In this document: positions 8,362 to 23,100 of the stretch, one piece after another | How the letters are laid out: each line of letters begins with the position of its first letter | How positions within the stretch are numbered: position 1 is the stretch's first letter | Source of the DNA: Rhodanobacter sp. LX-99 | GTDB lineage: Bacteria > Pseudomonadota > Gammaproteobacteria > Xanthomonadales > Rhodanobacteraceae | Reading direction: 5' to 3' | Length of the DNA stretch: 64,000 nt | Assembly (NCBI RefSeq): GCF_018599185.1 | Contig: NZ_JAHFVL010000001.1 | Span: 1,736,001 to 1,800,000 of the forward strand | Program-made: the position numbers and the translations under genes | Notes under the pieces: model-generated | The model's input: only the letters and a program-made list of their open reading frames with translations | Told to the model about the DNA's origin: nothing | Databases searched by the model: none

Positions 8362-8496
8362 TTGCTCTGCAAAAAGGGGACTGGCTGAGCCAGCCTCCTT
8401 GCCGCACCCATCTCCTTCAGGTCGGCGGCAAGGGCAAAAGGAGGATGCAGTAGGGGATGGAGGAAGTTAAGCGCGCAACTCCCCCGGACTCTCAGC

Positions 8497-8827
8497 TCAT
8501 GTCGCCGCCTGCGCCCCACCCAGCGCCTTGCGCCGCTTCTTCTCCGCTTTGCACTCTTTGCGCGCCGCCTTGCGAATCTTGCGGTCGTAATTCCACAGGT
8601 AGATCGCCGGGGTGCTGAGCAGGGTCAGCAGCTGCGACACCAGCAGACCGCCGACGATGGCGATGCCCAGCGGCTGGCGCATTTCCGAGCCGATGCCGAA
8701 ACCGATCGCCAGCGGCAGTGCCGCGCCCATCGCGACGAGGGTGGTCATGGTGATCGGGCGGAAGCGCACCAGGGCGGCTTCGCGGATCGCCTCGAGTGCG
8801 GACAGCCCGCGTTCGCGTTCGGCGAGG
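8497..8827 (-). pseudogene. Truncated 3' end of an RND pump gene (mdtC-like duplicate)
   Basis: About 110 codons in an intact frame, from [20 protein letters not shown] to the stop, match the C-terminus of the complete RND gene ending at 16850 nearly residue for residue (for example [20 protein letters not shown] in both). Nucleotide differences are scattered, roughly one in eleven by eye, so the copy is not recent. Similarity stops abruptly near 8827, where an IS4-family transposase remnant begins. Without its transmembrane bulk and promoter it cannot work. It is either a third tandem RND gene that was mostly replaced, or a duplicate made when the island between the copies arrived. Confidence 0.85.
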
Positions 8828-8829
8828 AA

Positions 8830-9446
8830 GGGCAATGGGTGCCGTGCCGTGCGCTGTATGCATCGGCCACCGCGCGGCCACGCGATCTGGGACTGATGAA
8901 TACCGTGCGTAGCGCACCCTGGGTCTGTCGCGTCGTGGTCTACCGCAAGCCGCCTCGCGGACGAAAGCATCGCAATCGCTTGGGACACGTTGCACGCAGC
9001 AAGATCAGTCTGCAGTGCGCATCGCGCGAGCGCGAGCCTTGCTGGTCGTGGCATCACCGGCGCTCGCTGATCTGAGTGCGCGCCAGCTGGTTGCCCTGTT
9101 ATGGGCGGCGCATGCAGATCGAATGTCGTTTCGCGATTTGAAGTCGCACCGCTATGGTCAAGGCTTCGAAGACAGCCTGACGCATAGCGGCAAACGTATC
9201 GATATTCTGCTGCTGGTGAACGCGCTGGCCGCCTTTGCCAGCTGGCTCGCCGGCCTGGCCTGCGAAGCCGCTGACATGGTGCATTGGCTCTCGCCCAGAC
9301 GATCGTCGCGCAAACTCTATTCGGTTCTTCACCTCGGTCGCGAAGCACTGATCAAAGCATGGGCTATGGAGCCCATATCACGCTGGTTGGACCGGCTGGA
9401 ATCGCTGCCTGCGGCAACACTCGCCCAGATGCAGGTACCGGCATGA
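8830..9446 (+). pseudogene. IS4-family transposase remnant, 5' truncated and frameshifted
   Basis: Across several frames the translation matches the C-terminal half of an IS4-family transposase as I know it: [13 protein letters not shown] and [13 protein letters not shown] in one frame (8839 on), then [18 protein letters not shown] and [20 protein letters not shown] in another. A frame change occurs near 9035-9045. The catalytic Y-x2-R-x3-E-x6-K signature is recoverable only by reading bases 9100-9123 (YGRRMQIE) in a different frame from the following SFRDLK, so two further compensating indels are present. The N-terminal half with the first two Asp residues is missing. It abuts the truncated RND copy. 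Confidence 0.82.
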
Positions 9447-9508: not shown

Positions 9509-9877
9509 TTACGTATGGATTAAAAGCCATGGTCTGAACCCCAAGAAAAACAAGTGCCGAAGGTACAGATACAGCCTCTCTAGACGTCCTATACGAAAGA
9601 AACTAAAACCAAGGTCTTTGCCAGCATTTTCATTGAGCTTGTCGCTACTGATTTCCCATATGTCGTGGACCCAGTAGTACGTATTGAAAGGCCTAGCGGT
9701 AATCTCACTTACTCCATGATCCTTTAATCTCTTTTGAATGAGAAGACTCACTCGATGGATCGCGCTCGTAGCGCTGTTAGCTTCAAGGAAAAAAGTGGAA
9801 TGAAATCCACACCCGCCATTGAGGTATGCGGGAGCACTCACAAATACACCTTCAATCATGACTTGATAAGCGGCCAT
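9509..9877 (-). CDS. Putative immunity protein of the RHS toxin
   Basis: A 122-residue protein with no signal peptide and no family that I recognise. It begins 11 bases after the stop of the RHS core/toxin gene, the usual place for a cognate immunity gene. Base composition is much lower in GC than the surroundings (27 of 60 bases at 9541-9600), which fits an exchangeable toxin/immunity cassette. It has a cytosolic look, with aromatic-rich segments (NTYYWVHDIWEI, RLYLYLRHLFFLG). The ribosome site is weak, so translation may be coupled to the toxin gene. The immunity role is inferred from position only. Confidence 0.6.
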   Translation of the reverse strand: MAAYQVMIEGVFVSAPAYLNGGCGFHSTFFLEANSATSAIHRVSLLIQKRLKDHGVSEITARPFNTYYWVHDIWEISSDKLNENAGKDLGFSFFRIGRLERLYLYLRHLFFLGFRPWLLIHT

Positions 9878-9888
9878 TGCTTATACGC

Positions 9889-10803
9889 CTACTGCGCTCT
9901 ATCCGGATCAGGCTTAGATTCTTCCGGTGGCGGTGGAAGCGGTAGCTCCGTCGATTGGGGTGGATTCGGATAATTAGGTACACCCATCCCAAGAGCATCA
10001 TTGAGCACGTTAATGATGTTGTTTGTTCTTGCAATGTCATCCTGTGTTGCAGGCCTAGGCGCAATATCTGGTATGTACTCTGCTGCTTCCGCCGCCTGGT
10101 TAAGTGCGCCAGCAAAACTTGCCGCTACAACGCTCACTTTTCCCCAGAATGAATGCCCCGTCTTGCCTTCAGTCTGATAGTGAGGCAGTCCCTTTGAGCC
10201 ATCCTTCAATTCATGACCCACGTGTTTGAGCTGGCCGTCGCTTCCATGAGCAGCACGCTCAACTCCACTGCTAATCTGACGGCGGTCACCAACAATATTT
10301 TGCTCGGCTCTTCGAGCTCTAATAGCCTGTTCCCGAGTAAGGCGAGCGACTCCCTGCATGCCATCCGCTGTCAGTCGAACAAGCCAAGCAACCGTTTTCT
10401 GACGCCCATCTGGATCGATGAATGTATACGGATTATTGTTGACGTATGCATACCGATTAAATCCAAACCCATCCCCCGAACTCGGCCCCACCGGATCCAC
10501 ACTCAAAAACCGCCCCACCTCCGCATCGTAGTACCGCGCCTGCATGTACACGAGCCCGGTCTCCGGGTCGCTCACATGTCCGGTATACCCCACCCCATTG
10601 GGGGCCGCGCCCATACTCGGCACCGACACCCCATACGGCGTGTACTCAAACCGTGCCGTGATGTTGCCGCTGGCATCGGCCTCCGCCAGCGGCGTCCCCT
10701 GCGGGTCGGTGTACACGTAGGTCACCGTGCCGGCATAAGTCACCGCTGCACACAGCCACAAGCTCGCCAGCGTCAACCATGATGAAATCTTTTTCATAGG
10801 CAT
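9889..10803 (-). CDS. Secreted solo RHS core protein with variable C-terminal toxin-like tail
   Basis: A 304-residue protein. Residues 1-24 form a signal peptide. Residues 25-134 are the RHS core: YVYTDPQGTPLAEADASGN, the YMQARYYDAEVGRFLSVDPVG signature and FNRYAYVNNNPYTFIDPDG, the usual junction before a polymorphic toxin. Residues 135-304 are the variable tail, with a His-rich stretch (KHVGHELKDG, LPHYQ, GHSFWG) that could bind metal, and a Pro/acidic end. I cannot name the tail domain. The gene starts 15 bases after the giant YD-repeat gene and is followed by a putative immunity gene. In ordinary RHS proteins this core is continuous with the YD shell; here it is separate with its own export signal. 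An AGGGA site precedes the ATG at 10803. Confidence 0.82.
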   Translation of the reverse strand: MPMKKISSWLTLASLWLCAAVTYAGTVTYVYTDPQGTPLAEADASGNITARFEYTPYGVSVPSMGAAPNGVGYTGHVSDPETGLVYMQARYYDAEVGRFLSVDPVGPSSGDGFGFNRYAYVNNNPYTFIDPDGRQKTVAWLVRLTADGMQGVARLTREQAIRARRAEQNIVGDRRQISSGVERAAHGSDGQLKHVGHELKDGSKGLPHYQTEGKTGHSFWGKVSVVAASFAGALNQAAEAAEYIPDIAPRPATQDDIARTNNIINVLNDALGMGVPNYPNPPQSTELPLPPPPEESKPDPDRAQ

Positions 10804-10818
10804 GACGACATCCCTAGC

Positions 10819-12705
10819 TCAAAGGCCCGAATTCAGCATGACGCTGCTGTAGTTGCTGAAGGCCGAGCAACCCGCGCTGTTGCACGCCTTCACACGGAAT
10901 TGCACCGTCCCGGTGGCAAAGATCAACTCCCTCCAAGATGTGCCTGAGCCGTTGTAGACGATGTGTACGCCGTCCTGGGGGTGCGTTTCTTCCAGTTGAT
11001 AGCTCGTGGCGCCGATCACGGTCGACCAAGTCGCACTCACCACCGGCTTGTAGGAGGGGCCACTCACACTGAGGCTGGGTGCCCCGGGCGCGGGTGGAAC
11101 CAACACCACGCTGACCGTTCCCGTGCCGCTCCACGGCCCACAGCCGCCGACATTGCACGCCTGCACCCGATACCCATAGGTGCCGTCGGTCTTGCCGCTG
11201 GCACCCCAGCTGGTATTGCCGTTCGCCTGCACCGTGGCCCAGCCGCCGCCGTTGACCTGCTCCTGCAGCGTGTAGCTGGTCGCCGCCGTCACCGCGCCCC
11301 AGCTCACCGTGTAGCTGCCGGTGTTGCTGCTTGCCGGCACACTCAGGCTGGGCGCCGCGGCCGGCGGAATCGTCACCACCACCGCGCTACTCGCTTTGTA
11401 CACACTGCAGCCGCTCGCGTTGCACGCCTGCACCTGGTACGTGTAGTTGCCGCTGGTGGTGACCGTGCTCGTGTTGCTGACGGCCGCACCGGTGTAGACG
11501 ACGCCCCAGCTGCCTGCCCCGAGACGCTGCTGCAGCGTGTAACTGGTCGCTGTGGCACTGGCCGCCCAGCTCACCGCGATGCTGCCGCTGCTGGTGGCCG
11601 GCACCGTAATGCTCGACGGCGCCATCGGTGGCAGCAGTACTGTAGTGCTGCCGGTAGCGCTCCACGGTCCGCAGCCACCCACGTTGCACGCCTGCACGTG
11701 ATAGCCGTAGGTCCCGTTGCCACGGCCACTGGTGCTCCAGCTGGTCAGGCCGTTGGTTTGCACGGTGGTCCAGGCGCCGCCATTGACCTGCTCCTGCAGG
11801 GTGTAGCTGACCGGTCCGGCTATACCGCTCCAGCTCACCGTGTAGCTGCCGGTGGCGCTGCTGGCCGGCGCGCTCAGAGTCGGCGCCGCGGTGGGTGGAT
11901 GGGTGACGACCAGCGTAGCGCTTCCAGCTTTCCACGCGCTGCAGCCGTAGGTGTTGCAGGCCTGCACCTGGTAGACGTAGCTGCCGTCGGCCAGTCCGGT
12001 AAGAGCCGCGTTGGTACCGCTGCCGGTATAGGCCGTGCTCCAGCTAACCCCGCCGTTGCCGCTCTGCTGCAGCGTGTAGCTCGTCGCCAGGTTCGCCGCG
12101 CTCCAGCTTAGTGCGACGGCGCCGGTGTTGCTGGTGGCGGGCACGCTCAGGCCGGCCGGCACGTCCGGCACCACGCCGTAGGTCGTATCCACGGTCACCG
12201 CATTGGACCCGGCCCAACCGCGCGTGCCGTGAGCATTCTTCGCCGACACTTGGTAGGTGTAGCTGCCGCTGGTGGTGCCGGCGCGGCTGATCGACGTCGC
12301 GACGGTGTTGCTGGCGATCGTGGTCCAGCCGCCACCATCCAGGCGCTCCTGCACGTCGTAGCTGGTGGTACTGGCTGGGGCTGTCCAGCTCACCGTGTAG
12401 GTGCCGTTGATGGTGCCGCTGGGCACCGTCACGGTGGGTAGTGCCGGAGTCACGCCCAGCGTGGCCGAGGTGGTCCAGGCACCACAGGTGGCAACCACGC
12501 AGCCTTCGGCGCGATAGACGTAACTGCCGCCGGCCTTGCCGCTCAGCGCCTTGCTGGCCGCGCTGCCGCTGTAGACCGTGGTCCAGCCGCCACCGTTGGC
12601 GCTCTCCTGCAGGAGGTAGCTGGTCGCTCCCGGCACGGCACCCCAGCTCACCGTGTAGCTGCCGTTGTTGGGATTGGTGTCGAAGCTGACGGCACCCGGC
12701 GCGAC
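10819..12705 (-). repeat. Seven tandem Fn3-like coding repeats of about 270 bases
   Basis: At DNA level the 3' third of the giant RHS gene repeats with a period of about 270 bases; the phrase CAGCTCACCGTGTAGCTGCC (plus strand) and close variants recur near 11300, 11835, 12390 and 12650. Units four and six, counted from the N-terminal side, are the most alike (both with YTLQEQVNGGxW and VQACNVGGCGPW), suggesting internal duplication of a two-unit block. Confidence 0.85.
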
Positions 12706-15700
12706 CAGATGCAGGCTCTCGTTGTGGGCCAGTAGCTTGCGACCCAGGTAGACGAAGTTGCTGGTCTTGCCCGTCCCGGGATTCACTTGGTACAGCAGCT
12801 GCCCGGCCTGGTTGTAGAAGTAGTACGTGGGGGCACCGCCGCCCGCGGGTGTCTTCATCACACGGCGTCCCGCCGCATCGTAGGCGTAGTCGCCGTAGCC
12901 CGGAATCTGGGTCAGCTGGTTCTTCTGGTCGAAGACCAGGTTGGCGCCGTTCTTGTTGATGACATTGCCGCGGTTGTCGTAGACGAACGTGCTACCGGCA
13001 CCACCGCTGATCGAGCCCAATTGGTTAAGCGTGTTGTAGTTGTAGGTGAGGGTCTGCCCACCGGCGATCCGCGTGCGGATGTTGTTGAGCGGATCGTAGG
13101 TGTAGCTTTCCGTGCCCCACAGGCCAGTCGCCTGCGCACTGCTCAGTCGGTTCAGCGCGTCGTAGCCGAACACCTTGGTGCGCGGGCCGCTGGCCAGGTC
13201 GTCGACCTTGATGATGTTGCCGTTGGCGTCGTAGGTGTAGTCCTCGCTGAGCACCGGCGTGGCGCCCTGGCCGTAGCTGAAGTTGCTCACCAGCTGGCGG
13301 GCGTTCTTCTCGGCCGCGTACACCGCGCCGTTGCCGTAGACGAAGTCCTTCACTTCGCCGTCCGGGAAGTAGGTCAGGCCGGTGGCGTAGCTGCCAACCT
13401 GGGTGGCGCGACCCAGCGCGTCGGGGGCATAGCTGACGTTTTCACCGTCGGGGTAATGGATCAGGCTCACGCTGCCGTAGGCGTCGTGCGCATAGCCGAT
13501 CGCCCAGGCACTCTGGCCGGTCAGCTGCAGCGACTCGCCGGTCAGTTGGCCCCGCTTGTTGCGGCTGGCCGTCCACAGGCTGAGGCCCGAGGTGGCGCTG
13601 GCCATATTGCCCAGGGCATCGTACGTATAGACCGTGCCCTGGGTGCCAACCGGCGGTGACAGGGTCAGCAGCCGGTTCATCGCGTCGTAGCTGCGCGTGA
13701 TCTTGCCGGTGGCCACCTGCTCCTGGCCGCAACCGGTACCGGTGATGGCGAGGCCTTCGGCGCTCCATGCCAGGTTGTTGGCGTTGTCGTAGGCCATGAC
13801 CGTGCTACCGCTCTCCGGCTCGGTGGTGCGGCACAGGCGGTGGTAGCTGTCGTAGATCAGCGTCTTGGTGACATCGACACTCTGCGTCGCATACAGGCCC
13901 GACTGCTGGATCGACAGCGGGTTGCCGTAAAGATCGCGGATGATGTCCTGGGTGACGTTCTCCGGCGCCTGGACCTTGGTCACCGCGTCGTAGGACGGCT
14001 GGTCGAACACCTGGTAGCTGGTGGTGGTGACCTTGCCCTTGGGGTCGGTAACCTGCCGGCGGGCACCGGACAGGTAGGCGGTGCTCGTGGTCAGCACACC
14101 CAGCTCGGAGTCCTGCCGGGTCTGGATCAACCGACCCAGCGCATCGTAGCTGCTGGTACTGCCGGCGATGCCGGCGCTGGCCGGTGTCGTGGTGAAGTTC
14201 AGGGCACTCGCGCTCGGGTACGAGGTGAAGGTCTTCTGCCCCTTCGGGTCGTAGGTGGTCAGGCCGCTGGTGGTCGAGCCGGCGACCCCACTGATGTAGC
14301 TGTCGCTCAGCACCGGGCGCAGCAAGGCGTCGAAGTACGTCACCATCCGCGCGTTGCCCTTGCTGACGGTGCGGCGCCAGTGGTTTGCACCGATCCCGCG
14401 CTCGGCGGCGGTCACGTAGTCGTAGGTGAACACCGAGGGGTACCACGCCTGTTCGTCCCCGCTGGGGTAGCTGATCTGTTTCAGCCGGCCGACCGCGTCA
14501 TAGCTGTAGGACATAGTGCTGCCGGCCTGGTCGGTGATCGACGTGATCTGGCCGAAGTCGTCGACGATGAGGCTTTGCGTACGGGTGTCCGGGTAACCGA
14601 TCGTCAGCGGGATGCCGCGCTTGTAGTTGCTCAAGCTGGTGGTGTTGGTGTTGCCGTCGGTGAAGCTCGCCAACTGACCGGCGCCGTCGAACGTGTAGCT
14701 CATGAGTTTCTGGTCGAAGCGCCAGCGCTCCTTGAGCGTCACCTTGGCCAGGTCGTAGACGTTCCGGCTCACCGTCTCGCCGGTGGTCAGGTTGTCCGTC
14801 TGCAGCGGCAGGCCCAGCACCCAGTGCGGCAGGTCGTTGAGGTAAGTGGTCTGCTCTTGCACCGCACCCTGCCCGACGATGCTGTTGAAGCGCTTGGTCT
14901 GGGTGACCTGCGCGTAGGCGTTGAACGACTCCGCCTGCCATGTGTAGCTGTCGCCATCCTGGGTGATCACGCGCTGGTTCAGCGGGGCCTGCCGCTCGAC
15001 CACCGCCAGGTTCATGCGTGACTGCAGGTTGTAGCCGTACACGCTCGGCCATAGCCCTGCATTGGAGGCGGCGTACTGGCTGGCCTCCGAGCGCAGCAGG
15101 GTCGTGCCGACCGCGCCGCTGTAATACTCGGTGCGCTGCAACTGCCCCTCGGTCTCGTCGAATCGGTTGCTGAAGGTGTTGCGTACCGCACGCCCCTGCG
15201 GATCAAGCACGTCCGTCCATACCGTACTGACGCAGCCACCGGCACAGTCCTGCAGCCAGCTAGCGTTGTCCGGGGAGTAGTTGTAGCTCCAGGTCTGGCT
15301 CGGCAAGCCGGCGCCACCGAAAGTCTTTTGGATGATCGCGAAGGTGGCGTAGACGCGCGGTGTGTAGGCGTAGCTGCTGTCGTCGGTCGTCTTCACGCAT
15401 TGTCGTGGCACGTAGGAGCGTCCGCGTACCACCGGCTTGACCTGGAACGTACCGGTCAGCCCGGATGGATGCACGATGCTGCCGCTCGGGACATTTGTCG
15501 ACAACAAGCCCAGGCTTTCGCAATCCCCTCCGCCGACAATGATCTCGCCGCTGCGTAACCCGGCCAGGTCATACGACCAGGCGCTGCCATCGGGCAGCGT
15601 GACCTTGTTCAACACGTGGTAGACATCCGTACCGTACTGGTAGGACCACGTACGAGAACCAAGCGGGGACTGCAGTGTGGCGGCACTTATGCGCGAAGTC

Positions 15701-16638
15701 CCAAGCTCATAGGAAAGATCCAACGCGCGACCGTCGCTGGCGGTAATAGCGGTGAGGTTCGCTCCGTCATAGCTGTAGGTAAGGAAGTTGCCGAAGCGAT
15801 CCTCGATACGCGTGACCAACATTGACGCCTGCCGGCGGCGCAGAAAATCATCAATGGCAACCATTGGCTGCACGCCACCATACGACTGCAGGCTCATGGG
15901 ACCAGAACCGATCGGCCGGGTCATGGTAGGTGCCCACCGGTAGACGAGGTGGTTGAACCAGTACTTGGTGCCATCCGGCGAAATGGCCAGGAAGGCCTCT
16001 CCAGGACCACTGCCATCGGTCGCAGGCAGGCAGGTAATCATCCAGTTCTGCCTGGTCACAATGGGGAAGGACGTCGTACCCATCGCTGGTGACAGGGCGT
16101 TTTCGCTGGAACGCTTGAGCAGGTCCTGACTACCGCTACCCGGTATGACGAGTTGGTATCCGGCCCACCAAGTGGCTGGTTCCCAGTCGGCGCCGCCCTG
16201 CTGCAACGCGACGGTGGGGGGCGGACCGAATAGCGTGCATCTGGCATCGCTATTGGATTGATTGATCTCCCAGCCACTGACGTTGGTCTGGTTGGCCGTC
16301 ATTGTCGTGATGCGGGGAACTTCGATATCCCAGTCGGAAAAAGCCCCATCAATCGACTCGGACTCCTTCGCTTCCCTCAGGTGATACGAACGCGATAACT
16401 GCAGCAAGGGCCCATTACCGGGCAGGCTGACGTCGGTCTGCTCGAACGACAGGCTGCCGTTGTACAGGCTCACCTGCTCGCCGAACGGGTTTTCGCCTAA
16501 CGGCTGGATGTCCTTGCTGACGCGAATCAGCTTCTTGTATTCGTCTTCGGGCGTAACCGCCGACTGGGCGTGGCATACACCGGCCAACGCAAGCAGTACT
16601 ACTGCCGACAGGCAAATCCCTTGCCAATAAACGCGCAT
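10819..16638 (-). CDS. Giant RHS/YD-repeat protein with seven C-terminal Fn3-like repeats
   Basis: A 1939-residue secreted protein with a signal peptide (about residues 1-25, ending CHAQS). Residues of roughly 40-300 resemble the N-terminal part of RHS/TcC-type shells (NPFGEQVSLYNGSLSFEQTD). YD repeats run from about 300 to 1300 (YDAVGRLKQISYP, YDALGRLIQTRQD, YDALNRLSSAQ and others) and stop at FVYLGRKLLAHN. From about residue 1311 to the end come seven fibronectin-III-like repeats of about 90 residues, each with a (T/S)SYxLQE or similar strand and a YxVQACN strand. The DPxGL core that normally closes the shell is absent and is encoded by the next gene. The ATG at 16638 has an AAGGGGAAAGAG site. 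Likely a surface or secreted cocoon for a toxin; secretion route unknown. Confidence 0.88.
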   Translation of the reverse strand: MRVYWQGICLSAVVLLALAGVCHAQSAVTPEDEYKKLIRVSKDIQPLGENPFGEQVSLYNGSLSFEQTDVSLPGNGPLLQLSRSYHLREAKESESIDGAFSDWDIEVPRITTMTANQTNVSGWEINQSNSDARCTLFGPPPTVALQQGGADWEPATWWAGYQLVIPGSGSQDLLKRSSENALSPAMGTTSFPIVTRQNWMITCLPATDGSGPGEAFLAISPDGTKYWFNHLVYRWAPTMTRPIGSGPMSLQSYGGVQPMVAIDDFLRRRQASMLVTRIEDRFGNFLTYSYDGANLTAITASDGRALDLSYELGTSRISAATLQSPLGSRTWSYQYGTDVYHVLNKVTLPDGSAWSYDLAGLRSGEIIVGGGDCESLGLLSTNVPSGSIVHPSGLTGTFQVKPVVRGRSYVPRQCVKTTDDSSYAYTPRVYATFAIIQKTFGGAGLPSQTWSYNYSPDNASWLQDCAGGCVSTVWTDVLDPQGRAVRNTFSNRFDETEGQLQRTEYYSGAVGTTLLRSEASQYAASNAGLWPSVYGYNLQSRMNLAVVERQAPLNQRVITQDGDSYTWQAESFNAYAQVTQTKRFNSIVGQGAVQEQTTYLNDLPHWVLGLPLQTDNLTTGETVSRNVYDLAKVTLKERWRFDQKLMSYTFDGAGQLASFTDGNTNTTSLSNYKRGIPLTIGYPDTRTQSLIVDDFGQITSITDQAGSTMSYSYDAVGRLKQISYPSGDEQAWYPSVFTYDYVTAAERGIGANHWRRTVSKGNARMVTYFDALLRPVLSDSYISGVAGSTTSGLTTYDPKGQKTFTSYPSASALNFTTTPASAGIAGSTSSYDALGRLIQTRQDSELGVLTTSTAYLSGARRQVTDPKGKVTTTSYQVFDQPSYDAVTKVQAPENVTQDIIRDLYGNPLSIQQSGLYATQSVDVTKTLIYDSYHRLCRTTEPESGSTVMAYDNANNLAWSAEGLAITGTGCGQEQVATGKITRSYDAMNRLLTLSPPVGTQGTVYTYDALGNMASATSGLSLWTASRNKRGQLTGESLQLTGQSAWAIGYAHDAYGSVSLIHYPDGENVSYAPDALGRATQVGSYATGLTYFPDGEVKDFVYGNGAVYAAEKNARQLVSNFSYGQGATPVLSEDYTYDANGNIIKVDDLASGPRTKVFGYDALNRLSSAQATGLWGTESYTYDPLNNIRTRIAGGQTLTYNYNTLNQLGSISGGAGSTFVYDNRGNVINKNGANLVFDQKNQLTQIPGYGDYAYDAAGRRVMKTPAGGGAPTYYFYNQAGQLLYQVNPGTGKTSNFVYLGRKLLAHNESLHLVAPGAVSFDTNPNNGSYTVSWGAVPGATSYLLQESANGGGWTTVYSGSAASKALSGKAGGSYVYRAEGCVVATCGAWTTSATLGVTPALPTVTVPSGTINGTYTVSWTAPASTTSYDVQERLDGGGWTTIASNTVATSISRAGTTSGSYTYQVSAKNAHGTRGWAGSNAVTVDTTYGVVPDVPAGLSVPATSNTGAVALSWSAANLATSYTLQQSGNGGVSWSTAYTGSGTNAALTGLADGSYVYQVQACNTYGCSAWKAGSATLVVTHPPTAAPTLSAPASSATGSYTVSWSGIAGPVSYTLQEQVNGGAWTTVQTNGLTSWSTSGRGNGTYGYHVQACNVGGCGPWSATGSTTVLLPPMAPSSITVPATSSGSIAVSWAASATATSYTLQQRLGAGSWGVVYTGAAVSNTSTVTTSGNYTYQVQACNASGCSVYKASSAVVVTIPPAAAPSLSVPASSNTGSYTVSWGAVTAATSYTLQEQVNGGGWATVQANGNTSWGASGKTDGTYGYRVQACNVGGCGPWSGTGTVSVVLVPPAPGAPSLSVSGPSYKPVVSATWSTVIGATSYQLEETHPQDGVHIVYNGSGTSWRELIFATGTVQFRVKACNSAGCSAFSNYSSVMLNSGL

Positions 16639-16849
16639 CTCTTTCCCCTTGCCTTGTGCCCGGCGTTGCGCACGGTGACGGGGCAAGGTTGGATCGTAAA
16701 TACTTACGATGTCAACCGTCGAAACCAGCGACATCAGAGCTTTGGGTGAGACGCGTATCACGTTTCCAGACGCCCCAATACCCAGCCCGCCAGTCGCCGA
16801 CCGGGTACTAGGGCATATCACGCATGCATTCGAGGACCCGCATGCCCGC

Positions 16850-19800
16850 TCAGCTCGCCGTCTGCGCCCTACCCAACGCCTTCAAGCGCTTCTTCTCCGC
16901 CTTGCGTTCCTTGCGTGCGGCCTTGCGGATCTTGCGGTCGTAATTCCACAGGTAGATCGCCGGCGTGCTGAGCAGGGTCAGCAGCTGCGACACCAGCAGA
17001 CCGCCGACGATGGCGATGCCGAGCGGCTGGCGCATCTCCGAGCCGATGCCGAAGCCGATCGCCAGCGGCAGCGCCGCGCCCATCGCGACCAGGGTGGTCA
17101 TGGTGATCGGGCGGAAGCGCACCAGGGCGGCTTCGCGGATCGCCTCCGGTGCGGACAACCCGCGCTCGCGTTCGGCGACCAGGGCGAAGTCGACCATCAG
17201 GATCGCGTTCTTCTTGACGATGCCTATGAGCATCAGGATCGCGATGATCGCCATCATCGAGATCTGCGTCTGGGTCACCAGCATGGCGAGGAACGCGCCG
17301 GCGCCGGCGGCCGGCAACGTGGACAGGATGGTCAGCGGATGGCCGAGGCTTTCGTACAGGATGCCCAGCACGATGTACATCGCCAGGATCGAGCCGAGCA
17401 GCAGCACCATGCCGTTGGACTGGGCCTGCTTCAGGCGCTGGTTGGCGCCGGTGAAATCCACCCGCATGCCGGCCGGCAGCCGAGCCGCGTAAGCAGCCTG
17501 CTCGACCAGCTTCACGCCGACGTCCTGGGTGACGTCCTTGGCCAGGTTGTAGCTGATCGTGGCCGCCTCCAACTGGTTGTGGTGGCGCACGCGCAGCGGG
17601 CTGATGTCCGGCTCGATCGTCGCCAGCGCGGACAGCGGGATCATCCGCCCCTGCTCGTTGCGCACGCGCACGTTGAGCAGCGACTCCGGGCTCACCCGCT
17701 GCGCCGCGCCGGTGCTGAGCACCACCGAATACTGGTTGATGTCGGAATAGATCTGCGACACCTGGCGCTGGCCGAACGAGTTGTACAGCGCCGAGTCGAT
17801 CGTGCCGATGCCCACGTGCAGGCGCCCGGCGGCCTCGCGGTCGATCTTCAGCAGCTGCTGCTTGCCGACCTGGTCGAAGTTGCTGCCGACGTCGCGGAAT
17901 TCCTTGATGGCGCGCAGCTGCCGCACCATCTTCAGAACCCACGGCTGCAGGTCGTCGCCGTTGGTGCTGATCAGCTGGAACTCGTACTGGCCGCCGCCGT
18001 CGCCGCTGCCGCCGCCGCCGAGGAACTGCGCGGCGCTGACCGAGACCTTCACGCCGGGCAGCTTGTCGTAGTGCTTCGACAGGCGCTCGACCACCTGCTT
18101 GATGCCTTCGTCGCGCTGGCCCGGGCCGCTGCCGCGCGGCTTCAGGTCGACGAACATCTGCGCATTGTTGCCCACCGCGCCGCCACCGCCGCCGTCGCGG
18201 CCGAGCATGGTCAGCTGGTCGAGCACGGCCGGGTCGGCCTGCATGATCTTCGCCACAGCCAGCGTGCGCTCGGTCATCTGCGCCGGCGAGATGTTCGCGT
18301 CGGCGTTGATGTCGACCTGCAGCTGGCCGGTGTCCTCGTCCGGCATGAAGGTGCCGCCGGCGGTCTTCGCCACTGCGAAGCCGAGCGCGAAGGTGAGCAG
18401 CAGCAGGGTCAACGGCTGCCAGCGCATGATCCGGCGATGATGCATCGCCCAGTCCAGCGCGCGCGCGTAGATGCGCAGCAGGTTGCGGTCGAAACTCTCC
18501 ACCGCCCGCTCGATCCGCCCGGGCGGCTTGCTGCGCTCCGGCTCGTGGGTCAGCAGGTAGGCGCACAGCGCCGGCGTCAGCGTCAGCGAGACCAACGCGG
18601 AAATCACCACCGCCGCGGTCAGCGTCACCGAGAACTCGCGCAGCAGCATGATCAGCATGTTGTTGCCGAACAAGAGCGGCGCGAACACTGCCACCAGCGA
18701 CAAGGTGATCGAGATCACCGTGAAGCCGATCTCGCGCACGCCGGTCAGCGCCGCCTGCATCGGCGGCTCGCCGCGCTCCATGTGGCGCACGATGTTCTCG
18801 ATCACCACGATCGCATCGTCCACCACGAAGCCGATGCACAGCACCAGCGCCACCAGCGACAAGGTGTTGAGCGTGTAGCCGAGCGTCCACATCACCACGA
18901 ACGCGCCGGCCAGCGACAGCGGCACGCTTAGCGTGGCGATCAGGGTCGGGCGCAGCCGGCGCAGGAACACCAGCATCACCAGCACCACCATCACGATCGA
19001 GATCAGCAGCGCCACCTGTACTTCGTGCAGCGCCGACTTGGTGGTCTGGGTGAGGTCGAACACCGGCGTCATCGTCACGTTCTGCGGCAGCGAGGCGCGC
19101 AGTTGCGGCAGGCGGGCGCGGATCGCCTCCACCGTGGCCACCGCGTTGGCCTCCGGCCGCTTGCTGATCTGCAGGCCGACCGCACGCGCGTCGTTGAACC
19201 AGGCCGCCTGGTACTCGTCCTGCTGGCCGGAGTAGACCCGCGCCACGTCGGACAGCCGCACCGGCGTGCCGTTCTTCACCGAAATCAGCAGGCGGGCGAA
19301 CTCGGCCGGCGTCTGCAGGCCGTCGCTGGCGCTCACCGTCATCTGCGTGCGGCCGTCGCTCAGCGTGCCCTGCGGCGAGGTGACGTTGGCCGCGCGCAGC
19401 GCGTTGGCCACGTCGTTCGCGGTGAGGTTCTTGGCCGCCAGCGCGGCGGTATCCAGCTCGATCCGCACCGCATGCGGCGTGCCGCCGAACACCTGCACCT
19501 GGGCCACGCCGTCGATCTGCGCCACGGCGGGCTTGAGCATGGTGTCGGCGAGGTCGAACAGCTGGTCCTGCGGCAGTCCGGTCGAGGTCAGGGTGAGGAA
19601 CAGGATCGGGATCTGCGAGGTATCGAACTTGAAGTACTGCGGCGGCGACGGCATGCCGCTGGGCAGGTCGACCGCGGCCGCGTTGATCGCCGCCTGCACG
19701 TCGCGCGCGGCGCTGTCGGCGGTGCGGTCGAAGGTGAAGCGCACCATCACCGAGGCCTGGCCCTCGCTGGCGTTGCCGTACATCTCATCGACGCCGGGAA

Positions 19801-20179: not shown

Positions 20180-23100
20180 TTATTTCGGCAGGGCCGGCAT
20201 CTGCTGCTGCAGTATCCGCTGGCGTTTGATCTCGGCCCGCAACTGACGCCGCGCAACCTTGCGCTGGCGGTGATCGTGCTGCCACAGGTAGATCGCCGGC
20301 GTGCTCAGCAGGGTCAGCAGCTGCGACACGAACAGGCCGCCGAGGATGGCGATGCCGAGCGGCTGGCGCATCTCCGACCCGTAGCCGAAGCCGATCGCCA
20401 GCGGCAGCGCCGCGCCCATCGCCACCAGGGTGGTCATGGTGATCGGGCGGAAGCGCACCAGCGCCGCCTCGCGGATCGCCTCCGGCGGCGACATGCCGCG
20501 GTCGCGCTCGGCGACCAAGGCGAAGTCGACCATCAGGATCGCGTTCTTCTTGACGATGCCGATCAGCATCAGGATCGCGATCACCGACATCAGGGTCAGC
20601 TGGGTATGCGTGACCAGCATCGCCAGGAACGCGCCCATGCCGGCGGCCGGCAGGGTGGAAAGGATGGTCAGCGGGTGGATCAGGCTCTCGTACAGGATGC
20701 CCAGCACCACGTACATCACCAGGATCACCGCCAGCAGCATGATCAGCGCGTTGTTCATCGCATCGACCAGGCTCTGGTTGTCGCCGGAATACTTCTTCTG
20801 CACGCCGGGCGGCAGCTGCGCGGCGAACATCGCCTGGTCGACCAGCTTCAGGCCGTCCGCCTGGGTGATGCCCTTGGCCAGGTTGTAGTTGATCGCGGCC
20901 GATTCGAGCTGGTCGTAATGGTTGATCGTGACCGGCGCGATGTGCGGCTGGATCTTCGCCAGCGCGGACAGCGGGATCATCTGCCCCTTCGCATTGCGCA
21001 CATAGGTATTGAGCAGGGTGGCCGGGCTCAGCGACTCGGCGCTGCTGGCGGTGATCACCACGCGGTACTGGTTGATGTCCGAGTAGATGGTGGAGACCGG
21101 GGTCTGGCCGAACGCGTTGGCCAGCGCCGTATCCACCTGGGCCAGGCTGACGTGCAGGCGCGCGGCGGCGTTGCGGTCCACCCGCAGCATCTGCTGCTTG
21201 CCGATGCTGTCGAAGCTGGTGCTGACGTTGCGGAACTGCTTCATGCCGCGCATCACCCGCGCCAGCTTCAGGGTGGGCTGCTGCAGTGGCGTGCCGTCCA
21301 GGCTGCTGAGCTGGAACGCATACTGCCCCTTGCCGCCACCACCGCCGCCGCCACCGCCGATGAACTGGTTGACGCTGAGCGACACGTCCAGGTCCGGCAC
21401 GTTCTTGAAGTACTTGTCCAGCCGGTCGACCACCGCCTGGGAGGTGACGTGGCGGTCGCCCGGCCGGTCGCCAAGCGGCCTCAGGTCGACGAACAGGCTG
21501 GACTGGTTGCCGACCGCGCCCCCGGCGTTGTTGCCGCCGAGGAAGGTGGAGACGTCGCGCACCGCCGGATCGGCCTGGACCTTCGCCGCCACCTCCTGCG
21601 TGCGGCTGGCCAGCAGGGTGGGCGAGACGTTGGCGTCGGCGGTGATGCTCACCTGCAGCAGGCCGGTGTCCTCCTTCGGCATCAGGCCGCCGCCGGCAGT
21701 CATCACCACCACGACCGCCAGGCCGATGGTGAGCGCCAGCAGGATCAACGGCTGCCAGCGCATGATCCGGCGGTGGTGCATGGCCCAGTCCAGCGCGCGC
21801 TCGTAGATGCGCAGCATGCCGTTGTCGAAACGCTCGGCCAGGCGCTCCAGCCGCCCCGGCGTGCGCGTGCCCGCAGGCTCGTGCGCCAGCCAGGCGCCGC
21901 ACAGCGCCGGGGTGAGCGTGAGCGAGACCAGCGCCGAGATCACGATGGTGGCGATCAGGGTCACCGAGAACTCGCGCATCAGCATGGTGAACATGTTGTT
22001 GCCGAACACCATCGGCCCGAACACGGCGATCAGCGACAGCGTGATCGAGATCACCGTGAAGCCGATCTCGCGCACGCCGTTGAGCGCGGCCTGCAGCGGC
22101 GGCTCGCCGCGTTCCATGTGGCGCACGATGTTCTCGATCACCACGATCGCGTCGTCCACCACGAAGCCCACGCACAGCACCAGCGCCACCAGCGAGAAGA
22201 TGTTGAGGGTGAAGCCGAGCATCCACATCGCCACGAACGCGCCGGCCAGCGACAGCGGCACGCTGAACATCGCGATCACGGTGGGCCGCAGCCGGCGCAG
22301 GAACACCAGCATCACCAGCGCCACCATCACGATACCCATCAGCAGCGCCACCTCCACCTCGTGCAGCGCCGACAGGGTGGTCGGGGTGAAGTCGAAGATC
22401 GGGGTGATCGTCGCGTCGGCCGGCAGCAGAGCGCGCAGCTCGGGCAGGCGCGCACGGACCGCCGTCACCGTGGCCACCGCGTTCGCCTCCGGCCGCTTGT
22501 TGACCTGCATCACCACCGCGCGCTGGCCGTTGAACCACGCCGCGGCGTACTTGTCTTCCTGGCCGCTGCCGATCGTCGCCACATCGGCCAGCCGCACCGG
22601 TACGCCGTTGTGGCTGGCGACCACCAGCGCAGCGAAATCCTGCGCCGTGTGCAGCGCGTCGTTGGCGCTCACCGTCATGCGTGTGACGCCGTTGCTGAGC
22701 GTGCCCTGCGGCGAGGTGACGTTGGCGGCGCGCAGCGCATTCGCCACGTCGTTGGCGGTGATGCCCATGCCCACCAGCGCGCTGGTGTTCAGCACGATGC
22801 GTACCGCATGCGGCGTGCCGCCGCTCACCTGCACCTGGGCCACGCCGGGGATCTGCGCCACCGCCGGCTTCAGCAAGGTGTCGGTGAGGTCGTACAGCCG
22901 GTCCGGCGGCAGGCTGGCGGAGGTCAGCGAGACCAGCAGCACCGGGATCTGCGAGGTGTCGAACTTGACGTAGCCGGGCGGGCTGGGCAGCCCGGGCGGC
23001 AGGTCCGGCGCCGCCGCGTTGATCGCCGCCTGCACGTCGCGTGCGGCCTTGTCGGCGCCGCGATCCATGTTGAAGATGACCTGGATCTGCGCGCCGCCCT

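What the first reader, a model, noticed from the sequence alone, without database searches (positions are those of the whole stretch)
9509..16638. RHS toxin split into a signal-peptide-bearing shell and a separately exported core-toxin protein
Seen: the 1939-residue YD-repeat protein ends its repeats at FVYLGRKLLAHN, exactly where a standard RHS protein continues into the (Y/H)TDxxGxP core. That core (YVYTDPQGTPLAEAD to FIDPDG) is instead in the next gene, 15 bases on, with its own signal peptide and a variable tail, followed by an AT-richer small gene. Known: in RHS/TcC proteins the core and the toxin are covalently part of the shell and cleaved inside. Inference: shell and cargo are exported separately and assemble outside the cytoplasm, or the small protein is a free toxin carrying only the core as a docking tag.
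Basis: partly seen in the sequence, partly recalled or inferred. Interest (0 to 1): 0.75.

Follow-up and report, generated by a model that had tools for sequence, protein, structure and literature searches.

The report
Two-part secreted RHS toxin
A bacterial toxin that normally comes as one giant capsule-plus-poison protein is here, and in many related bacteria, encoded as two separately exported proteins, an empty capsule and a cork carrying the poison, so one capsule could in principle be loaded with different poisons.

Summary
A 1939-residue YD-repeat shell with a signal peptide (16638-10819, -) lacks the RHS core. The core (TIGR03696, E 1.7e-24) plus a variable tail is in a 304-residue protein with its own signal peptide, 15 bp downstream, followed by an AT-rich 122-residue gene.

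It is no local frameshift. In the loci examined, 48 of 88 non-fused cores lie -40 to 246 bp after a YD/FN3 gene and 81 of 88 have a signal-peptide-like start. In 59 family genomes, non-fused shells (400 bits or more) were seen only beside small cores. Some one-chain relatives sit inside the split clade; another has FN3 between barrel and core in one chain. A fused relative's model matches known RHS cocoons, core included.

Published genetics fits: in the Xanthomonas perforans Bcn-A bacteriocin the shell gene, ORF4 and T2SS are needed for killing and ORF5 gives immunity. ORF4, given a secondary role there, is by sequence a signal-peptide/RHS-core/tail protein.

Best reading: a two-part, probably T2SS-exported RHS toxin whose plug and cargo dock in trans. 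Docking is inferred. New variant of a known kind.

The parts
10819..16638 (-). Shell protein, 1939 aa: signal peptide, YD-repeat barrel, FN3-like repeats, no RHS core
16567..16638 (-). Signal peptide of the shell (MRVYWQGICLSAVVLLALAGVCHA)
   Evidence: sequence; hydrophobic SP-like start in 33 of 34 related shells
12721..16566 (-). YD-repeat barrel region, to FVYLGRKLLAHN
   Evidence: PF05593, 4 stretches; PDB RhsP match of residues 1134-1267 to chain 864-1009
10822..12720 (-). Seven FN3-like repeats, 633 aa, where other RHS proteins have the core
   Evidence: repeat spacing 86-94 aa; weak fn3
10804..10818 (-). 15-bp gap between shell stop and core-protein start
9889..10803 (-). Plug-toxin protein, 304 aa: signal peptide, RHS core, variable tail
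   Evidence: TIGR03696 E 1.7e-24; 1809 homologues of 0.55-1.75 times its length
10732..10803 (-). Signal peptide of the plug-toxin (MPMKKISSWLTLASLWLCAAVTYA)
   Evidence: sequence; SP-like start in 81 of 94 core ORFs, that is 81 of 88 non-fused
10402..10731 (-). RHS core (GTVTYVYTDPQG to FIDPDG), with both DP aspartates (D103, D130)
   Evidence: D103 and D130 invariant in the 76-row alignment A1; 43 distinct PDB sequences matched at E <= 0.001
9892..10401 (-). Tail (putative toxin), conserved H197, GLPHYQ and GH.FW; family unassigned
   Evidence: alignment A2; block pLDDT 87-96 over residues 141-220; no family
9509..9877 (-). 122-aa AT-rich gene, putative immunity protein for the tail
   Evidence: homologue directly after a fused core ORF with the same tail type in L003, 36% identity; only 2 homologues in the protein database

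Best explanation
This is a two-part secreted RHS (YD-repeat) antibacterial toxin. Gene 1 makes an exported barrel lacking its C-terminal plug, ending instead in FN3-like domains that probably serve attachment or recognition. Gene 2 makes a separately exported 'plug-toxin': the RHS core, which in known RHS structures is the aspartyl-protease plug closing the barrel, joined to a polymorphic toxin tail. Both cross the inner membrane by signal peptide; the core docks in the open barrel end in trans and carries the tail inside; the complex leaves probably by type II secretion, and the core cleaves off the tail as in one-chain RHS proteins. Gene 3 protects the producer. Shown: gene order, domains, signal-peptide-like starts, conservation, co-occurrence, fused and FN3-in-line relatives, and a fused relative's model that matches RHS cocoons through the core. 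Shown by others for Bcn-A: the need for shell gene, ORF4 and T2SS, and a downstream immunity gene. Inferred: docking in trans, encapsulation, cleavage, export route here, roles of FN3 and of gene 3.
Against: No complex was predicted or measured; the model is of a fused relative, and its last ~40 core residues, with the aspartates, are of low confidence (block pLDDT 69 to 35). 24 of 88 non-fused cores have no YD/FN3 ORF in the upstream DNA held; G027, G030, G046 and G053 have small cores but no shell of 400 bits; of seven loci taken around P0124-like cores one, L108, has no shell. So some cores may act without a shell. Bcn-A also needs ORF2 (124 aa), for which the window pair has no neighbour; not searched elsewhere. 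The own genome also has a T6SS (VipB). Bcn-A activity: mostly >100 kDa (legend) but 50 kDa and higher (text). At most 12 of 76 tails got a toxin-type Pfam family, and the window's got none.
Confidence: 0.7

Rival explanations
1. The small protein is a free secreted toxin; its core is a leftover, and the shell is an independent FN3 adhesin.
For: 24 of 88 non-fused cores have no YD/FN3 ORF in the upstream DNA held; G027, G030, G046, G053 have small cores without a 400-bit shell; some tails match stand-alone enzyme families.
Against: Nearly all well-conserved columns of A1 lie in the core, including both aspartates; a fused relative's core is ordered over its first ~70 residues (block pLDDT 80-93), while residues 51-130 of the window's protein alone are not (37-53); one-chain forms inside the split clade; Bcn-A needs shell and ORF4 (PMC7259588); short FN3 ORFs precede cores in L095 and L096.
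Confidence: 0.13
2. Small cores are reservoir cassettes: toxin-tail variants kept for recombination into the shell operon or into fused genes, not expressed as cargo.
For: Tandem array with near-identical starts and different tails (L106); orphan RHS-CT modules are known elsewhere (recalled).
Against: 81 of 88 keep a start codon and signal-peptide-like segment before the core, unlike headless orphan modules (recalled); Bcn-A ORF4 is needed for activity (PMC7259588).
Confidence: 0.1
3. A fragmented ordinary RHS gene: frameshift, deletion or assembly error.
For: Some relatives are one chain (L051, L065, L080, L081, L083-L085, L097).
Against: Conserved over many genera, signal-peptide-like segment before the core, extra domains at the joint, varying frame relation.
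Confidence: 0.02
4. A T6SS-delivered RHS effector whose cargo gene is separate.
For: Own genome has the T6SS sheath protein VipB.
Against: Both proteins have signal-peptide-like starts; no PAAR or VgrG match in the shell; Bcn-A depends on T2SS (PMC7259588).
Confidence: 0.03

Closest known systems
Bcn-A bacteriocin locus, Xanthomonas perforans (PMC7259588; abstract passage, sections 18 and 19 and other passages seen)
   Same: Large YD shell gene (1398 aa; modelled barrel 482-1308), small signal-peptide protein ORF4 (290 aa) that I find to be an RHS-core protein, immunity gene next; shell gene and ORF4 both needed for killing; T2SS needed
   Different: Two further genes (ORF2, ORF3) in between, ORF2 essential; authors call ORFA the toxin and give ORF4 a secondary role; window shell has seven FN3-like repeats and the cargo gene follows at 15 bp
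Tc toxins, TcB-TcC
   Same: Hollow YD shell made of two proteins, core protease and variable toxin in the second
   Different: Cut lies mid-barrel: TcB (9c4k_P) aligns over model 38-641 and TcC (4igl_D) over 634-1192, against ~1091 here. Here the second protein is plug plus toxin only, with its own signal peptide
T6SS Rhs effectors (Rhs1/Tre23, RhsP, Tse5, Tse15, RhsA)
   Same: Barrel, C-terminal aspartyl-protease plug, polymorphic toxin (PMC8636562, passages)
   Different: One chain, T6SS-delivered; no signal peptide and no FN3 between barrel and plug (recalled, apart from the passages)
Bacterial teneurin-like proteins (PMC13018210; abstract and passages seen)
   Same: Often Sec-exported YD shell, two DPxG motifs, polymorphic toxin, extra gene immediately downstream of almost all
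   Different: One chain
Orphan RHS-CT modules (recalled; PMC3150448 seen only in the listing)
   Same: Displaced core/toxin tails near RHS genes
   Different: Here most have their own start and signal peptide

Membership tests
RHS/YD-repeat polymorphic toxin | YD-repeat barrel | tested here: met
   PF05593 in shell, 4 stretches; a fused relative's model matches RHS cocoons
RHS/YD-repeat polymorphic toxin | RHS-associated core with DP..DPxG aspartates | tested here: met
   TIGR03696 in 76 of 76 A1 members; D103 and D130 invariant in A1
RHS/YD-repeat polymorphic toxin | Polymorphic toxin tail | tested here: met
   For the family: toxin-type Pfam families in at most 12 of 76 tails, tails otherwise not alignable; the window's own tail is unassigned
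RHS/YD-repeat polymorphic toxin | Barrel, core and toxin in one polypeptide | tested here: not met
   Separate ORFs, each with a signal-peptide-like start
RHS/YD-repeat polymorphic toxin | Downstream immunity gene that neutralises the toxin | not testable with these tools
   Third gene travels with the same tail type in L003; activity not testable
TcB-TcC | SpvB/beta-propeller TcB with mid-barrel split | tested here: not met
   No SpvB or TcB family among matches of the shell; split at the barrel/plug joint
T6SS Rhs effector | PAAR or VgrG-linked N-terminus | tested here: not met
   No such match in the shell; signal peptide instead
Bcn-A type multi-gene bacteriocin | Shell gene without core, plus signal-peptide core protein, plus next small gene | tested here: met
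   Window; ORF4 placed via P0123, P0124; L107, L110. The Bcn-A sequence itself was not held
Bcn-A type multi-gene bacteriocin | T2SS-dependent export and need for an ORF2-like gene | not tested
   gspD present; no ORF2 homologue was searched for

The most novel reading that the evidence does not exclude
A breech-loading toxin: one exported, unplugged RHS shell is loaded after export, from its open end, with any of several plug-toxin proteins in the genome, orphan copies included, so the arsenal is changed by which cork docks rather than by DNA recombination.
Probability: 0.33. Interest if true: 0.86.

Novelty: new variant of a known kind. Interest (0 to 1): 0.67.

Why it matters
RHS toxins are understood as capsules built around cargo on the same chain. 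A conserved two-protein form, with the cut at the barrel/plug joint and both parts carrying signal peptides, asks how a folded shell can be loaded from outside and lets loading, cleavage and release be tested with separable parts. It also offers a concrete re-reading of the Bcn-A bacteriocin (shell = carrier, ORF4 = toxin) and a likely role for many small 'RHS repeat-associated core domain-containing proteins' in databases (1809 homologues of similar length; whether each has a shell was not tested).

Full report
Observation. The shell gene (16638..10819, -) encodes 1939 residues with a signal peptide and ends its YD repeats at residue 1306. After 15 bp comes a 304-residue gene with its own signal peptide, a TIGR03696 core at 54-133 (E 1.7e-24) and a 170-residue tail; after 11 bp follows a 122-residue gene. 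GC is 0.630 (YD), 0.675 (FN3), 0.594 (signal peptide plus core), 0.529 (tail) and 0.444 (third gene), against 0.675 for the window, as one would expect of an exchanged toxin/immunity end.

Conservation. The genome scan confirmed 425 relatives of the core protein and kept the best, 77 loci, mostly from genera of the Rhodanobacteraceae (family placement recalled). With the own-genome second copy (L002), scripts found 94 core ORFs of 40 bits or more: 6 are in one frame with YD repeats; 81 of the other 88 begin with a signal-peptide-like segment before the core by a simple hydrophobicity rule (several of the 7 exceptions are cut, masked or partial). Of the 88, 48 start -40 to 246 bp after a YD or FN3 ORF (31 at 27 bp or less), 8 lie further downstream, 24 have no YD/FN3 ORF in the upstream DNA held and 8 have under 2 kb of upstream DNA. 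The frame relation varies (10/13/25), so the split is not a frameshift. Three far records (Psychrobium, Cognaticolwellia, Pleionea) keep the order. 33 of 34 shells have an SP-like start; 43-684 residues (median 486, 38 shells) follow the YD end. In several shells this part begins with a GWAC-type region rather than FN3.

Co-occurrence. In 59 genomes of the family (26 genera), I read small, non-fused cores (open frame under 700 aa, 80 bits or more) in 24, and shells of 400 bits or more in 20 of those 24; the other 35 have no non-fused shell of that strength, and 4 of them have fused ones. p is 3.8e-12 as first run, 3.0e-11 with non-fused shells only (G004, whose strong shells are mostly fused, not counted) and 4.6e-8 with any shell. 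The cut-offs were chosen after seeing the lists, and the lists omit weak matches. G004 aside, cores are as many as or more than shells: one shell with four cores in G021, G009 and G001, one with two in the window's genome. Of the four genomes with small cores but no 400-bit shell (G027, G030, G046, G053), G046 and G027 have a short FN3 ORF right before a core, as if the shell had decayed, and G030 has a weaker fused one.

Cargo. Tails of the 76 A1 members hit Tox-REase-7 (2), and once each LHH, HNH, HNH_5, Ntox24, MafB19 and OTT_1508 deaminases, lysozyme, glucosaminidase, M15 and M91 peptidase families, so at most 12 of 76. The window's tail has conserved H197, GLPHYQ and GH.FW but no assigned family or fold. 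The same tail type occurs behind fused and split cores, and a 36%-identical third gene follows it in a Xanthomonas record (L003), which fits a toxin/immunity pair.

Precedent. PMC7259588 (sections 18 and 19 and passages, abstract included) mapped the Bcn-A bacteriocin of X. perforans: deleting ORFA (1398 aa, YD barrel), ORF2 or ORF4 (290 aa, signal peptide, two predicted membrane helices) abolished killing; ORF5 gave immunity; activity was lost in an xpsD mutant host; it was in supernatant, mostly above 100 kDa by the legend and 50 kDa and higher by the text. The authors took ORFA for the toxin and gave ORF4 a secondary role, noting some identity of ORF4 to WapA and RhsA. The printed ORF4 segments match P0123 (90%) and P0124 (290 aa, 78%), both with TIGR03696, so ORF4 is very probably a plug-toxin of this kind. 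I then took seven loci around P0124-like cores of 130 matching genomes among 398 of the order. Five (L104, L105, L107, L109, L110) have an intact YD shell gene before the core, one (L106) an interrupted one, one (L108) none. L107 and L110 repeat the Bcn-A plan: shells of 1401 and 1397 aa ending 97-98 residues after the YD match with no core, two small ORFs, then a signal-peptide core protein. The Bcn-A sequence itself was not held, so that link rests on ORF4 plus architecture.

Mechanism and limits. Likely steps: Sec export of both, trans docking of the core as plug with tail inside, T2SS release (gspD present; a T6SS is also present), FN3-mediated contact, core autocleavage, tail entry. Only gene order, domains, conservation and, in Bcn-A, the genetic need for shell gene, ORF4, T2SS and immunity are shown. 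Docking, loading order, FN3 role and use of orphan cores are inference.

Noticed in passing
window 8495-8825 vs 16848-17178 (and 8561-8831 vs 20250-20520): The RHS island is bracketed by a truncated extra copy of the 3' end of an RND efflux gene: 92% identity over 331 bp to the gene upstream of the shell, 85% over 274 bp to the next RND gene (ACR_tran). Possibly a duplication made when the island entered.
   Followed up: partly
window 9015-9446 (+): A 143-aa ORF that looks like a transposase remnant (recalled impression); no Pfam match at 0.01.
   Followed up: partly
G000:C1:1353652-1354005 (L002 1441-2373): Second plug-toxin in the own genome, signal-peptide-like start, different tail, followed by a 124-aa gene with DUF6572; no shell in the 1.4 kb upstream held.
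   Followed up: partly
L106 (G370:C1:2299500-2319400): Interrupted shell followed by a tandem array of signal-peptide cores: four with near-identical starts and different tails plus a partial fifth: a cassette array.
   Followed up: partly
L082 468-7034: Single frame with four FN3 domains between YD barrel and core and an Ntox47 tail.
   Followed up: partly
L107 9718-10412, L110 9773-10452: Two small ORFs with hydrophobic, signal-like starts (judged by eye) between shell and core, one with a sub-threshold DUF5992 match; likely counterparts of Bcn-A ORF2/ORF3, role unknown.
   Followed up: no
L008, L015, L042, L056, L057, L061, L072: After the YD barrel these shells begin with a GWAC/GWTC-motif region instead of an FN3 repeat (first 30 residues seen).
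   Followed up: no
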